The position numbers and the translations under genes were made by a program. Below are positions 36,842-42,234 of a stretch of DNA of 64,000 nucleotides, one piece after another. Each line of letters starts with the position of its first letter. Position 1 is the first letter of the stretch. The stretch covers positions 1 through 64,000 of the forward strand of contig NVUJ01000004.1 of the NCBI GenBank assembly GCA_002733135.1. The letters are read 5' to 3'. The stretch is from Cycloclasticus sp. (lineage in GTDB: Bacteria > Pseudomonadota > Gammaproteobacteria > Methylococcales > Cycloclasticaceae). The notes under the pieces are model-generated. The model saw only the letters and a program-made list of their open reading frames with translations, was not told where the DNA came from and searched no databases.

Positions 36842-38848
36842 TTACGCCACTAACGCTTTTGCCGCCACTACCAATTTGTTTGCGGTAATACCAAAGTGTT
36901 CAAACAACTCTTTGGCCGGGGCGGATTCGCCAAAGCAATCCATACCAATCACTGCGCCATTTAAACCCACGTATTTATACCAAAGCGCCGTTGTACCTGC
37001 TTCAATCGCCGCTCTTGCCGTTACTGATGAAGGCAATACTGATTCTTTATACGCCGCGTCTTGCTTGTCGAACAGATCTGTACACGGCATAGACACCACG
37101 CGAACCTTAATGCCATCGGCGGATAATTGCTCTGCGGCTGCCGTTGCCAATTCAACTTCTGAACCCGTACCCATTAAGATGATTTGTGGCTTGCCGTCAC
37201 AGTCTTTCAGCACATAAGCGCCTTTTGAGATATCAGCCACTTGTTCTGCAGAACGGTCTTGGTGTTGTACATTTTGACGAGTAAAAATAAGGGCTGACGG
37301 CGTATCTTCACTTTCCACCGCGCACTTCCACGCCACCGCAGATTCAACTGCATCACACGGGCGCCAAACGTCTAGGTTCGGAATAAGGCGTAAGCTTGAA
37401 ACGTGTTCAACTGATTGATGCGTTGGGCCATCTTCGCCCAAACCAATTGAGTCGTGCGTGAAAACAAAGATGTTCTTTAACTTCATCAACGCCGCCATAC
37501 GAATGGCGTTTCTTGAATAATCTGAGAACGTTAAGAAGGTTGCGCCGTAAGGAATAAAACCGCCATGTAACGCAAGTCCATTTTGGATCGCACTCATGCC
37601 AAATTCACGCACGCCATAATGTAAGTAGTTGCCGTTGGCATTGTTGCCATCTACGTCAGTACAGCCCGTCCATTCAGTTAAGTTTGAACCGGTTAAATCA
37701 GCAGAGCCGCCTAAGAATTCAGGTAATAACGGCCCAAATGCGTTTAACGTATTCAGCGATGCTTTACGTGAGGCAATGGTATCGCCTGCTGCTTGCGTTG
37801 CTTGAATGAAGGCTGATGATTTTTCTTCCCAATCATCGCTAAGTTCACCCGATAAACGACGCAATAATTCATCCGCTAATTCTGGGAATTGCTCGACGTA
37901 AGACTCAAGTAATGTTTCCCATTTGGCTTCGGCTTGTTCGCCCTTATCGCATCCATCCCATGCGTCTTTAACGTCAGATGGGACTTCAAACGCCGGTGCA
38001 GACCAACCTAATACTTTGCGTGTTGCTGCAATTTCTTCAGCGCCTAATGGTGCACCGTGAACGTGATGAGTGCCTTCTTTATTTGGTGCACCAGAACCAA
38101 TCACCGTTTTGCAGCAAATAAGCGTTGGCTTATTGGTTTCTTTTTGAGCTTGTTCAATTGCTTGCTTAATATCCGCCGCATCATGTCCGTCAACAGCACG
38201 AACCACATGCCAACCGTACGACTCAAAACGCGCGGGGGTGTCATCTGTAAACCAGCCTTCCACAAAACCATCAATTGAAATACCGTTATCGTCCCAAAAC
38301 GCAATCAGTTTGCCTAAGCCTAACGTGCCCGCATAAGAACACGCCTCGTGCGAAATACCTTCCATCAAGCAACCGTCACCCATAAAAGTGTAGGTGTAAT
38401 GGTCAATAACCGGGAAGCCGTCTTGATTAAATTGCGCCGCCAATACTTTTTCAGCCAACGCCATGCCCACCGCATTGGTAATGCCTTGGCCTAATGGGCC
38501 AGTGGTGGTTTCAACACCTGGCGCGTAACCGTATTCAGGATGACCCGGTGTTTTTGAATGAAGTTGACGGAAATTGCGCAGCTCATCAATGTCTAAATCG
38601 TAACCAGACAGGTGCAACAAAGAATACAACAACATTGAACCATGGCCGTTAGATAAAATAAATCGATCACGATTAACCCAATGCGGGTTAGTCGGGTTAT
38701 GCGACAAAAAGTCGTTCCACAACACTTCAGCAATATCAGCCATACCCATTGGCGCACCGGGGTGGCCTGAATTAGCTTGTTGAACGGCATCCATACTAAG
38801 GACACGAATGGCGTTAGCCAGCGTTTGGCGAGAAGGTGTTTGGCTCAT
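36842..38848 (-). CDS. tkt: Transketolase
   Basis: A 668-residue ThDP enzyme of the pentose phosphate pathway. ThDP-binding is seen at [13 protein letters not shown] (about 156-168) and GHDAADIK, pyrimidine-domain [14 protein letters not shown] (about 470), and [11 protein letters not shown] at the start. Length is normal. It is the first gene of a tkt-pgk pair. Confidence 0.96.
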
Positions 38849-38942
38849 GGTCGGTATTTATTTATTGAGTGTAATAATCAGCACTTAGCGCACTGATTTT
38901 GAAAGGATGAATTTTACACGGAACGGTCTAGAAGAGAAACCG

Positions 38943-39107
38943 TTAGTCGGTCTTGCCTGCTTCGGTAGAAGCGTTTTCTTTGGCTTCTTGTTCTTCCCAT
39001 AAATCAAGCGCGTTGAAATAGGTATCCCAAACGCAGGGGCAGCAACCACCACCGCCACAGCAATCGTCGTTTTCGGGGCGGATGGGTTTTGAGAGTTTGT
39101 TGGTCAT
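38943..39107 (-). CDS. Small Cys-rich protein, oxidoreductase-like N-terminal domain family
   Basis: 54 residues, too short for routine calling. The core KPIRPENDDCCGGGGCCPCV then WDTYFNALDLWEEQ matches the short oxidoreductase-like domain (Cys cluster followed by CVWD.Y) found in many proteobacteria and in mitochondrial proteins. The Cys cluster (five Cys in about ten residues) suggests metal or Fe-S binding. The ribosome site is weak. It lies upstream of tkt on the same strand. Function is unknown. Confidence 0.75.
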   Translation of the reverse strand: MTNKLSKPIRPENDDCCGGGGCCPCVWDTYFNALDLWEEQEAKENASTEAGKTD

Positions 39108-39635
39108 GGTGGGATTTTACATTACCGAATGGTAATCTGACATTTATTGAATAGCTCCTTCCTCCTAGCAGGGGGAAGGTTGGGATGGGGGTTGTAGTTT
39201 GAATTTTAGCTTTAGTGTTCTATTTTGAGTTTTCGCTGCCGCGAGGGCGTTCATTTCTTTTTGCGACAAAAAGAAACGAACCAAAGAAAAGGTCGCCCAA
39301 ATCGCAGTAACTAATTGTTTTCTGGTTCGCGCTAAACTCGCTACGCTCAAACAAAGCGCTCTCTTATCCGAAAAAAATTAATTCCTAGCGCGATAAAAGG
39401 GGTGATAAATCAAAAGCAGTTGGTTTTGACTTTCAAACCCCCTTGCACTCACTGAAAAACTAATTATTAAAATAGAGCTTTCTACTGTGGTTGTTTGAGC
39501 CTGCTTTTTTAGGCAGGTTCCACAGTAGCTATTTTAATGATTGGTTTTGAAGGAAACCTTCAGGGTGAAAGCAAATGGGTGGTATTTTTCTGGTTACTCT
39601 TTTCCCCTTTGTGTAAAAATCACTAAAGCATAGTT
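39108..39635. other. Long noncoding region with repeats and hairpins
   Basis: No protein gene is supported in these 528 bases. It holds a purine-rich block (39169-39198), a perfect hairpin TTTCTTTTTG-CGA-CAAAAAGAAA (39254-39276), the large nested hairpin at 39466-39538, and a GAAGG-AAA-CCTTC hairpin (about 39550-39562). The segment around 39230-39360 resembles spacer repeats I have seen scattered in other proteobacteria (memory, not searched). It separates the tkt-pgk block from the AT-rich GHKL/STAS/PIN operon. Confidence 0.7.
39466..39538. repeat. 73-nt nested inverted repeat
   Basis: Three stems fit inside one another: ATTAAAATAG (39466-39475) with CTATTTTAAT (39529-39538); CTACTGTGG (39482-39490) with CCACAGTAG (39520-39528); AGCCTGC (39498-39504) with GCAGGTT (39513-39519, one G-U). 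The left strand has internal bulges of 6 and 7 nt. It could be a structured RNA, a terminator complex for the PIN operon, or a small repeat element. Confidence 0.7.
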
Positions 39636-40217
39636 TCAGCTAAACTTTACTGATTTCTTATTTGCCGTTACAACTATATGTTCTTGACTTGTACAGAAGT
39701 CATAATCATCAGTAACAATATAATCTATAGCTTCATCCACCATTATTTGAGAGAAAAAAGCATCAAACGGATCCAAATTGCTTTTATCCATAATGCATTT
39801 AGCTTTTGAGGTAAATTCAGAGTCTAAATGCATACTTAAACAAGCAGACATACTTTCAATCGTATCCCAAGCAATTTTAATCTCATTAAGAACTTTAATT
39901 CTTTCTTCTTGAAGAGATCTAAATTCTTTTTTAGTACACGGCTTCCCTGAATCAGCGATATATTTTTTATGTTCTGCGTCTTCAATTACATTAGATATTT
40001 CTGTGAAAGTTAATGGGCAATGGCACAGCACACTACCATTACTTAATGCTTTTTCAATGTACGCTGGATAATCCTTCATTTGATAATCTTGAGGTGTATT
40101 GTTCATTTTAAAAATCTGAGAGGATGCGTAAGTAAGCCAAAACCAAACATTTGTATCTACAAAATAACGCTCATTGTTTTTTGGCTCATCTGAATTTAAA
40201 TCAATAATTTGCGCCAT
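39636..40217 (-). CDS. PIN-domain protein (putative RNase) of the GHKL/STAS operon
   Basis: A soluble protein of about 193 residues with the acidic residues expected of a PIN nuclease: Asp21 in YFVDTNVWFWL, Glu about 72 in TFTEISNVIE, Asp pair about 148-151 in LDPFDAFF, and Asp 169-170 in IVTDDYDF. The insert at about 85-125 is helical and charged. It is the last of three genes, starting 3 nt after the STAS-like gene stop. No antitoxin of the usual VapB type is nearby; the two upstream proteins may play the control role (inference). Confidence 0.75.
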   Translation of the reverse strand: MAQIIDLNSDEPKNNERYFVDTNVWFWLTYASSQIFKMNNTPQDYQMKDYPAYIEKALSNGSVLCHCPLTFTEISNVIEDAEHKKYIADSGKPCTKKEFRSLQEERIKVLNEIKIAWDTIESMSACLSMHLDSEFTSKAKCIMDKSNLDPFDAFFSQIMVDEAIDYIVTDDYDFCTSQEHIVVTANKKSVKFS

Positions 40218-40220
40218 CTT

Positions 40221-40565
40221 TTAATCGTCACTATTCTTAATAATCTCATTTAAATTTGCATCAGACGCTGCATCCATTGCGTAATATTTTATTGCATTTT
40301 CAATAACGAGGTTTAGTAGCTGCCGACCAAATGTACTTAAATTGATAATGTTCATATCTCGCTGCAAATTTTCAAGCTTAATATCTTGAAGCAGCAACCC
40401 TATACTTGCATTAAAAAAAGGAGACGCGAAAAGCTCAACACCAGAAAAATCTAATTCTACATGCTCACTTGCAATCAATGGAGCATGGATTTTTTCGTAT
40501 AAGTTACGACCACTTTGCATCGAAATTGCATTCGACCCAACTACCTCTTCCACAATTATTTTCAT
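40221..40565 (-). CDS. STAS-like (DUF4325-type) protein
   Basis: A 114-residue protein. ELDFSGVELFASPFFNASIG (about 37-56) is the diagnostic stretch of the STAS-like domain, the position where anti-anti-sigma factors carry their switch Ser; here it reads FASPFFN. A preceding helix has SGRNLYEKI. It is sandwiched between a GHKL ATPase gene (12 nt upstream) and a PIN gene (3 nt downstream), suggesting partner-switch control. Confidence 0.78.
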   Translation of the reverse strand: MKIIVEEVVGSNAISMQSGRNLYEKIHAPLIASEHVELDFSGVELFASPFFNASIGLLLQDIKLENLQRDMNIINLSTFGRQLLNLVIENAIKYYAMDAASDANLNEIIKNSDD

Positions 40566-40577
40566 AAAACTTACCTT

Positions 40578-41540
40578 TTAAAAGAAAAACCCCAGCTCAT
40601 CATCTTCAGCAATAAACTTATAATACCTATCATCGCAATTAATAGAAATATTGACCATTGTTCCATTTAGAGGCGTTTTTAACAATGATACTTCATAGCG
40701 ACCTTCCTCATTTACATATGCACAACACCCGTTACTATAAACACTAAAACTACCTTTGTTTAGAGAAACGAAATCACTTAAAAGTTCAAAACCTAGGCCT
40801 CTTGGCAGATTCACACCTTGACTATCTGTTCTTGTTGAATTTCCTGCAATTAGGGCCCACTCCATAGCCTCGATATCACTAAACTTAGAGTCTACGTGCG
40901 TCTTAACCGTTTGCACAATACCTTCTCCAAAATCAAGTACTGTAAGCTTTAGCTTACCCTCTTTTTTATTATACTGACCGCAACTCATAACGCCTAAACC
41001 ACTTACAGGCTTCTGGTCCGCTCCATGACCATATGCATTCATAAAAATTTCAAAAATTCTGCTCACTATCGCAGACTTAAGGTCATTACTTAATTTTATC
41101 TTTTCAGAAGATAACCACTCATTATCTAGATGGAATGCAATCTCATCAGCATCAAGATAGTCCGTGTGCTGCCTATATCCAATATAACTACCACTTGGGT
41201 AACCTGAAAATTTTTCCTGACTAAAGTGAGCCAAAAAATTGTTTTCAATTAAATTGTTACTAATAATCTCACTCATAGTATCAACCAAAAACATAACCCC
41301 ATATTGTGGAATCATTACACCACCTAAAGCCTTATTAAATAATGTGTTTTGAGTGTTTATGTACTGGGCTAGCCCTCCAAGGATTGCAACAGCATTTTGT
41401 TCTAAAATAGCGCAGTTTCTAAAATTAATATCAAAGTGCTTTCTTGGGTTATTTAGCACCTGATTAACTAACTTAATTAGATAAACATACCCATTCTTAT
41501 CATCCCTAACAGAAGGTAAATTTATAATCATCTTTTCCAT
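40578..41540 (-). CDS. GHKL-fold ATP-binding protein with N-terminal STAS-like region
   Basis: 320 residues. The C-terminal half carries a GHKL ATPase: N-box EIFMNAYGHG (Glu164, Asn168), G1 LDFGEGI (about 202-208) and G2 RGLGFELL (about 247-254). No His phospho-acceptor domain or membrane helix is visible, so it resembles anti-sigma-type serine kinases more than sensor kinases. Residues 1-65 (HFDINFRNCAILEQNAVAIL) have a STAS-like pattern. It is the first gene of the operon with the STAS-like and PIN genes. The coding bases are noticeably AT-rich compared with the flanking ubi and tkt genes, suggesting horizontal transfer. Confidence 0.78.
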   Translation of the reverse strand: MEKMIINLPSVRDDKNGYVYLIKLVNQVLNNPRKHFDINFRNCAILEQNAVAILGGLAQYINTQNTLFNKALGGVMIPQYGVMFLVDTMSEIISNNLIENNFLAHFSQEKFSGYPSGSYIGYRQHTDYLDADEIAFHLDNEWLSSEKIKLSNDLKSAIVSRIFEIFMNAYGHGADQKPVSGLGVMSCGQYNKKEGKLKLTVLDFGEGIVQTVKTHVDSKFSDIEAMEWALIAGNSTRTDSQGVNLPRGLGFELLSDFVSLNKGSFSVYSNGCCAYVNEEGRYEVSLLKTPLNGTMVNISINCDDRYYKFIAEDDELGFFF

Positions 41541-41615
41541 TAACTTTCTAAAACCTCATTTTATAACGCATATGACACAAATTTATATCTCATCTTACAA
41601 ACCTATCTTGGGTAA

Positions 41616-41629
41616 TCAAACATGTTTGA
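41616..41629. promoter_or_regulatory. 14-bp perfect palindrome upstream of the GHKL operon
   Basis: TCAAACATGTTTGA lies 75 nt upstream of the GHKL start, in the 142-bp gap between the operon and the thioredoxin-like gene. It may be an operator for the three-gene unit; no regulator gene is linked. The rest of 41541-41682 shows nothing else recognisable. Confidence 0.35.
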
Positions 41630-41682
41630 ACAACTTAACTGACACAGAGGGTACGCGTCGTAATGTCGAGCATATCGGTCAA

Positions 41683-42234
41683 CTAACTCCACTTTATAGA
41701 ACACCCTATACTAGAAATCTGCTCAACGGGCCCTTCCCCCATTTCAGCAACTATCAACATTGCATCAACCAAATCCCGTTTCATACCACCAACATTCTCT
41801 TGCATACCACTTTCATCTAGCCGCCCACGGTATTGCAATTTCATTTTGGCGTTATAGCCAAAAAAATCAGGGGTGCAAATTGCGTCGTAATCTTTAGCCA
41901 CTTGTTGCGTTGTATCTATTAAATAGGGGAAGTTATAGCCTTTTTCTTTAGCCACCAACTGCATATTCTCAAACGAATCTGCGGGGTAGTCGTTTGGGTC
42001 ATTCGACATAATAGCGACAACGCCTATGCCATTCCCGGTTAGTACGGTTACGTCTTCTACCAAGCGTTTTTGTATGGCTTTTACAAACGGGCAATGGTTG
42101 CAAATAAACATGACCAATAAACCATTTTCACCCACGCATTCATCACGCGTCCAATGTGTACCATCGACACCTTGTAATTTAAAGTCTGGTGCTGGTGCGC
42201 CAAAATCGCAGATGGGTGTGTGCATTAAAGTCAT
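41683..42234 (-). CDS. Thioredoxin-fold peroxiredoxin-like protein
   Basis: A 183-residue AhpC/TSA/ResA-type thioredoxin fold: FGAPAPDFKLQGVDG, the active site FICNHCPFVKA (about 44-54, CxxC), cis-Pro CTPDFFGYNA, and the family ending SIGCSIKW with a third Cys. There is no signal peptide, so it is cytoplasmic. It lies 9 nt downstream of ubiB on the same strand and is probably cotranscribed with the ubi genes. The physiological partner is unknown. Confidence 0.85.
   Translation of the reverse strand: MTLMHTPICDFGAPAPDFKLQGVDGTHWTRDECVGENGLLVMFICNHCPFVKAIQKRLVEDVTVLTGNGIGVVAIMSNDPNDYPADSFENMQLVAKEKGYNFPYLIDTTQQVAKDYDAICTPDFFGYNAKMKLQYRGRLDESGMQENVGGMKRDLVDAMLIVAEMGEGPVEQISSIGCSIKWS

What the first reader, a model, noticed from the sequence alone, without database searches (positions are those of the whole stretch)
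39636..41540. Three-gene GHKL-ATPase / STAS-like / PIN-nuclease operon, candidate undescribed system
Three AT-rich genes lie 3 and 12 nt apart: a soluble GHKL ATP-binding protein with a STAS-like N-terminus and no phospho-His domain, a stand-alone STAS-like protein, and a PIN nuclease with its acidic residues intact. GHKL kinases and STAS proteins form partner switches in sigma-factor control; coupling such a switch to a PIN RNase would be a new type of toxin or stress/phage-response control. The unit sits between housekeeping blocks, beside structured noncoding DNA, with a 14-bp palindrome upstream, as expected of a mobile or defence cassette.
Basis: partly seen in the sequence, partly recalled or inferred. 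Interest (0 to 1): 0.8.

Follow-up and report, generated by a model that had tools for sequence, protein, structure and literature searches.

The report
VapKSC phage-defence toxin operon, divergent sensor
Three linked bacterial genes form a kinase-controlled toxin switch (VapKSC), a phage-defence system first described in June 2026; this copy is ordinary in its toxin, antitoxin and kinase, but its branch has replaced the residue that the published version needs to sense trouble.

Summary
Three AT-rich minus-strand genes, 12 and 3 nt apart, encode a STAS-like+GHKL kinase, a DUF4325/STAS protein and a PIN nuclease. The same operon recurs in 17 loci from Gammaproteobacteria, other Pseudomonadota, Deinococcus and phages, often inside restriction-modification or CRISPR neighbourhoods. 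The "undescribed" part is wrong. It is vapKSC, described in June 2026 (PMC13373217). The window's PIN and STAS proteins match the crystallised Escherichia VapC and VapS (PDB 9z7o; E 6.3e-20 and 3.4e-16), with VapC D28 (here D21) and VapS S48 (here S48) conserved. The kinase domain is closest to SpoIIAB (Z 11.1). Likely mechanism: VapS holds VapC inactive; VapK, when triggered, phosphorylates VapS-S48 and frees the RNase. New here: the window's sub-branch (4 members, 100/99 support) has I/K/K/R where 13 of 13 other VapKs have F/W/Y, the putative ssDNA-stacking residue needed for defence in Escherichia (F54), plus a 14-20 residue insertion in the sensor domain, with catalytic residues kept under purifying selection. 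This suggests a different or modified trigger. Filed as a variant of a known system.

The parts
40578..41540 (-). vapK: STAS-like N-terminal domain (about 1-107) + GHKL kinase domain; N-box E164/N168/H172, G1 D203/G205/G207, G2 G248/G250; I45 at the position of Escherichia VapK F54; insertion about residues 62-82
40221..40565 (-). vapS: DUF4325/STAS antitoxin, predicted phospho-acceptor Ser48, C-terminal helix
   Evidence: PF14213 E 1.7e-14; 9z7o_A Escherichia VapS E 3.4e-16, ungapped, S48 = S48; S/T in 15 of 15 relatives; helix in model
39636..40217 (-). vapC: PIN-domain RNase toxin; D21, N23, E73, D149, D152, D171, D173
   Evidence: PF01850; 9z7o_C Escherichia VapC E 6.3e-20; invariant residues in 14 relatives
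41541..41682 (.). intergenic region upstream of vapK (promoter region presumed); 14-bp palindrome TCAAACATGTTTGA at 41616-41629
   Evidence: the palindrome is not conserved at other vapKSC loci
39604..41680 (.). approximate extent of the acquired cassette
   Evidence: flanks 38800-39603 and 41681-41724 align with congener L085, which carries an HNH-like remnant instead

Best explanation
A vapKSC operon: a three-component, kinase-gated toxin-antitoxin system of the anti-phage/stress type. At rest VapS (STAS) binds the PIN RNase VapC and keeps substrate RNA from it (shown for Escherichia; inferred here). On a trigger, VapK (GHKL, SpoIIAB-like) phosphorylates VapS on Ser48, which sits at the VapS-VapC interface, so VapC is freed, cuts RNA and stops growth, limiting phage spread. 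In Escherichia the trigger is proposed to be ssDNA stacking on VapK F54. In the window's sub-branch that aromatic residue is replaced (I45; K/K/R in its sisters) and the sensor domain has a 14-20 residue insertion, so the trigger step is probably modified. Shown here: gene content, homology, conserved active-site residues, fold, mobility, defence neighbourhood of relatives, purifying selection. Inferred: phosphorylation, toxicity, RNA target and trigger.
For: Direct sequence matches to 9z7o VapC and VapS. Same gene order in 17 loci. PIN-linked VapKs form one clade, 100/100, apart from GHKL+DUF4325 pairs without PIN; in a 251-genome search the 6 hits at E<1e-70 all had STAS and PIN, and the hits at E>1e-31 had no PIN. 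VapK domain 2 best matches SpoIIAB (Z 11.1 against about 8 for the rest), domain 1 matches RsbS STAS. Ser/Thr at VapS-48 in 15 of 15, catalytic Glu/Asn/His and G boxes invariant, PIN acids invariant. 5 of 9 triad neighbourhoods hold RM, Cas or other defence-system genes against 0 of 9 control regions of the same genomes. Absent from 17 of 17 congeners, low GC. Experiments on the Escherichia system: PMC13373217.
Against: No experiment on this copy. The Escherichia VapK sensing residue F54 is not conserved here. The window itself has no recognised defence genes next to it. VapK has only 29% identity to E. coli VapK. The three-gene read-through model gives domain folds but no reliable interfaces (pTM 0.56).
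Confidence: 0.93

Rival explanations
1. The GHKL+STAS pair is a CapKS-type transcriptional regulator that happens to sit beside a PIN gene; STAS represses transcription rather than inhibiting VapC.
For: CapK and CapS use the same kinase-STAS logic and often sit beside RM systems (PMC13373217); a palindrome lies upstream here.
Against: CapS has a wHTH domain and CapK an HTH domain; the window STAS protein is 114 aa with no room for one and matches VapS (3.4e-16), while CapS (9z72) is only a weak profile hit (E 0.12). The palindrome is not conserved. The PIN gene is constant in the clade.
Confidence: 0.03
2. An ordinary two-gene VapBC-like toxin-antitoxin with STAS as antitoxin; the GHKL protein is a hitchhiker or has lost its sensing role in this branch, so the system acts as a plain addiction module.
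For: The aromatic sensor residue is lost in this branch; A. sifiae VapK even has an internal stop.
Against: All kinase residues are invariant and W-L002 vapK has dN/dS about 0.21; gene order is kept in all four members (PIN cut off by the contig end in L002).
Confidence: 0.08
3. The window's branch is vapKSC but senses something other than ssDNA (another nucleic acid, nucleotide or phage protein) through the altered groove and the insertion. This is a sub-case of the best explanation, not an alternative to it.
For: I/K/K/R instead of F/W/Y plus a 14-20 aa insertion with a conserved Q64-N65 pair, in a well supported branch under purifying selection.
Against: Other residues could still bind ssDNA, K/R could contact phosphates, and even for Escherichia VapK ssDNA activation was not shown biochemically.
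Confidence: 0.35

Closest known systems
vapKSC of Escherichia sp. E4736 (Chambers et al., EMBO J 2026, PMC13373217; VapS-VapC crystal structure PDB 9z7o)
   Same: Gene order and content; VapS S48 and VapC D28 equivalents; STAS-like+GHKL kinase; sporadic, mobile, near defence genes.
   Different: VapK F54 replaced by I45, 14-residue insertion after it, 29% VapK identity to the E. coli JNE25-001 homologue.
CapK/CapS (same paper)
   Same: GHKL kinase phosphorylating a STAS partner at the SpoIIAA-like Ser.
   Different: CapK has an HTH and CapS a wHTH and represses transcription; here STAS has no DNA-binding domain and the output is a PIN nuclease.
SpoIIAB/SpoIIAA and RsbW/RsbV partner switches
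   Same: Kinase fold (Z 11.1), catalytic Glu/Asn N-box, Ser at the SpoIIAA S58 position (residue correspondence from own knowledge).
   Different: No sigma factor; the target is an RNase; the kinase carries its own STAS-like domain.
VapBC type II toxin-antitoxin
   Same: PIN toxin held by a protein antitoxin.
   Different: Antitoxin is a STAS protein regulated by phosphorylation; VapS does not displace the Mg ion (PMC13373217).

Membership tests
vapKSC | Three-gene operon: STAS+GHKL kinase, STAS protein with short C-terminal region, PIN nuclease | tested here: met
   same order in 16 other loci
vapKSC | Sequence homology to crystallised VapS and VapC | tested here: met
   9z7o_A E 3.4e-16, 9z7o_C E 6.3e-20 with the window proteins alone
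vapKSC | Absolutely conserved Ser/Thr at VapS position 48 | tested here: met
   S48 by ungapped alignment; 15 of 15 S/T
vapKSC | PIN catalytic residues incl. D28 | tested here: met
   D21 aligns with D28; D/N/E/D/D/D invariant
vapKSC | VapK aromatic residue F54 (CapK W68), putative ssDNA contact (reported as conserved; not part of the operon's definition) | tested here: not met
   I45 in the window, K/K/R in its sisters, F/W/Y in 13 of 13 other VapKs; numbering tied by the in-frame ATG 5 codons upstream in E. coli vapK
vapKSC | Toxicity of VapC, relief by VapS, phosphorylation, phage protection | not testable with these tools
   needs expression
CapKS regulators | CapS wHTH and CapK HTH domains | tested here: not met
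   VapS 114 aa, only STAS plus helix; VapK begins with the STAS fold
VapBC | VapB-type DNA-binding antitoxin gene | tested here: not met
   partner is DUF4325/STAS

The most novel reading that the evidence does not exclude
The window belongs to a VapKSC branch whose sensor was rewired: the nucleic-acid-stacking aromatic residue is gone and a new insertion sits beside it, so the kinase answers a signal other than ssDNA while driving the same toxin.
Probability: 0.35. Interest if true: 0.6.

Novelty: new variant of a known kind. Interest (0 to 1): 0.38.

Why it matters
VapKSC is a freshly described, modular immune switch whose trigger is the least tested step (Escherichia VapK was insoluble). 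A natural branch that keeps the kinase, antitoxin and toxin but drops the proposed sensor residue is a ready-made test of the ssDNA model, and a possible source of a soluble VapK. Relatives lodged inside restriction-modification operons (L070, L103) fit a back-up role when restriction damages DNA or fails.

Tried and rejected
Rfam and tRNA, PADLOC and NCBIfam models: no hits, so PADLOC 2.0 of 2023 does not cover this system. Palindrome as a conserved operator: rejected. Noncoding block as part of the cassette: rejected. AlphaFold2 of the three genes read through their TAA stops as a stand-in for a complex: first alignments misplaced PIN rows (60) or held rows that may not be used; the final run gave good domain folds but pTM 0.56, so no interface claim is made. 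Foldseek of that fusion was uninformative apart from GHKL and PIN matches such as 7vwo. Searches for more members of the window's branch in viral contigs, phages and related genomes found none. Literature searches with DUF4325, GHKL and PIN terms missed the key paper; partner-switching and anti-phage terms found it.

Full report
What is there. On the minus strand at 41540-39636 three genes follow each other with gaps of 12 and 3 nt: a 320-aa protein, a 114-aa protein and a 193-aa protein. Pfam finds DUF4325/STAS (PF14213, E 1.7e-14) in the second and PIN (PF01850, E 5.7e-6) in the third; the first is below Pfam's cut-off for HATPase_c_2, but its AlphaFold2 model (mean pLDDT 81, pTM 0.84) aligns best with the anti-sigma kinase SpoIIAB (Z 11.1, other folds about 8) over residues 117-304 and with the STAS protein RsbS over 1-107 (Z 7.8). 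No PADLOC (2023) or NCBIfam model hits any of them.

Is it a unit? Yes. The order kinase-STAS-PIN recurs in an uncultured Cellvibrionales MAG (L002, PIN cut by the contig end), Aliivibrio sifiae (L003, next to an integrase), a Deinococcus gobiensis plasmid (L004), Streptococcus phage Javan172 (L005, PIN not annotated), an unnamed faecal phage contig (L099), E. coli JNE25-001 at the edge of a prophage (L106; two of 5426 E. coli genomes) and ten further genomes. In a search of 251 genomes of the order, the six kinases found at E<1e-70 all had both partners, and those at E>1e-31 had at most STAS. The PIN-linked kinases form one clade with 100/100 support. It is rare and sporadic: 6 of 251 in the order, none of 17 congeners, 1 further genome of 369 in the class.

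What it is. A full-text search found Chambers et al., EMBO J, 9 June 2026 (PMC13373217). They describe vapKSC: a CapK-like STAS+GHKL kinase (VapK), a STAS antitoxin (VapS) and a PIN toxin (VapC); 289 instances, 36% within 10 kb of another immune gene. The window's PIN protein alone matches the crystallised Escherichia VapC (PDB 9z7o chain C) at E 6.3e-20, and its STAS protein matches VapS (chain A) at E 3.4e-16 without a gap; no other solved structure passes E 0.1. VapS S48, which in Escherichia is buried in the toxin interface and whose mutation abolishes protection, is S48 here (A47-S48-P49). VapC D28, whose loss kills toxicity, is D21 here. So this is vapKSC by gene content, homology and the tested residues of toxin and antitoxin.

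How it most likely works. In the Escherichia system VapS inhibits VapC in a 2:2 complex, a phospho-mimic S48E no longer binds or protects, and the operon gives about 100-fold protection against phage Bas42, lost with VapC D28A, VapS S48A or VapK F54A. The window kinase keeps the catalytic N-box glutamate and asparagine and both glycine boxes (invariant), VapS keeps Ser48 (S/T in 15 of 15) and its C-terminal helix, and VapC keeps all acidic residues. The same chain of events (VapK active, VapS phosphorylated, VapC freed, RNA cut, growth arrested) is therefore the best reading here; it is inferred, not shown.

What differs. The published trigger model rests on an aromatic residue of the VapK STAS-like domain, F54, equivalent to CapK W68, thought to stack on ssDNA. 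E. coli JNE25-001 VapK has an in-frame ATG five codons before the annotated start, which puts its F49 at number 54. At that column 13 of 13 other VapKs (E. coli included) have F, W or Y, but the window has I45 and its three nearest relatives have K, K and R. These four also share an insertion of 14-20 residues a little downstream, with Q64 and N65 conserved, and form a branch with 100/99 support. The branch is not decaying: dN/dS is 0.09-0.26 where dS can be estimated (near saturation, so approximate), although the A. sifiae vapK itself has a TAA at residue 54. So among the residues with a tested role it is the sensor residue that has changed. Whether the trigger differs or ssDNA is bound another way cannot be told from sequence.

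Setting. The operon's PIN and GHKL genes have the lowest GC of the window's larger ORFs (0.32 and 0.35 against a mean of 0.44), and the operon sits between tkt and a redoxin gene. Congeners have other cargo or little there: DUF429-like plus HNH genes in L077, L080 and L083, an HNH remnant in L085, 0.2 kb in L086 (these names are my reading of the sequences). L085 shares the noncoding block 38800-39603, which therefore belongs to the site and not to the cassette. Relatives are in defence islands: triads between hsdS and hsdR of a type I RM operon (L070) and in one block with a fused PARIS gene, a type III methylase and a Res-like gene (L103), beside CRISPR I-F cas1/cas3 and an hsdS (L069), type IIG RM (L002), type III methylase, DrmD-like helicase and a DUF262 protein (L066), and HEC-01 with a Res-like gene (L072). 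With the same gene-calling, 5 of 9 triad neighbourhoods against 0 of 9 control regions from the same genomes held such core defence genes at E<=1e-30; the control hits were RtcR-like, SNF2-helicase, PDC-S03, mad3 and homing-endonuclease models. The sample is small, but the published 36% agrees.

Verdict. Observation confirmed; interpretation right in kind, wrong in being undescribed. Known system since June 2026; this copy belongs to a branch with a changed sensor site.

Noticed in passing
L104:8920-10097 (G1243): GHKL+DUF4325 pair without PIN directly downstream of a complete type I RM operon (hsdM, hsdS, hsdR by PADLOC); STAS protein about 137 aa, apparently no wHTH, so neither CapKS nor VapKSC as described.
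   Followed up: partly
L100:3545-4743: GHKL ('sensor histidine kinase') + STAS-like pair just after holin and lysin genes of a Streptococcus agalactiae phage-like element, no PIN: a two-gene module in a typical phage cargo position.
   Followed up: no
L019, L021, L044, L102: Single proteins of about 400-430 aa that join a GHKL domain and DUF4325, including one on a conjugative Nostoc plasmid; function unknown.
   Followed up: no
L103:5655-16418: Triad lies in one co-directional block with a type III methylase, a fused AriAB (PARIS) gene, an AlbA/Schlafen-like gene and a Res-like gene; the PIN stop touches the Res start.
   Followed up: partly
L070:4733-11333: Triad sits between hsdS and hsdR of a type I RM operon, with a REP-transposase-like gene before hsdR.
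   Followed up: partly
L003:8001-8975: Aliivibrio sifiae vapK has an in-frame TAA at residue 54; pseudogene or sequencing error.
   Followed up: partly
L005:3891-4421: The PIN ORF of the triad in Streptococcus phage Javan172 is not annotated in the record.
   Followed up: yes
window 41616-41629: 14-bp perfect palindrome TCAAACATGTTTGA upstream of vapK, unique in the genome at up to 1 mismatch, not found at other vapKSC loci; no role known.
   Followed up: yes
window 39249-39300: Hairpin GTTCATTTCTTTTTG/CAAAAAGAAACGAAC in a noncoding block shared with congener L085; looks like a site-associated repeat.
   Followed up: partly
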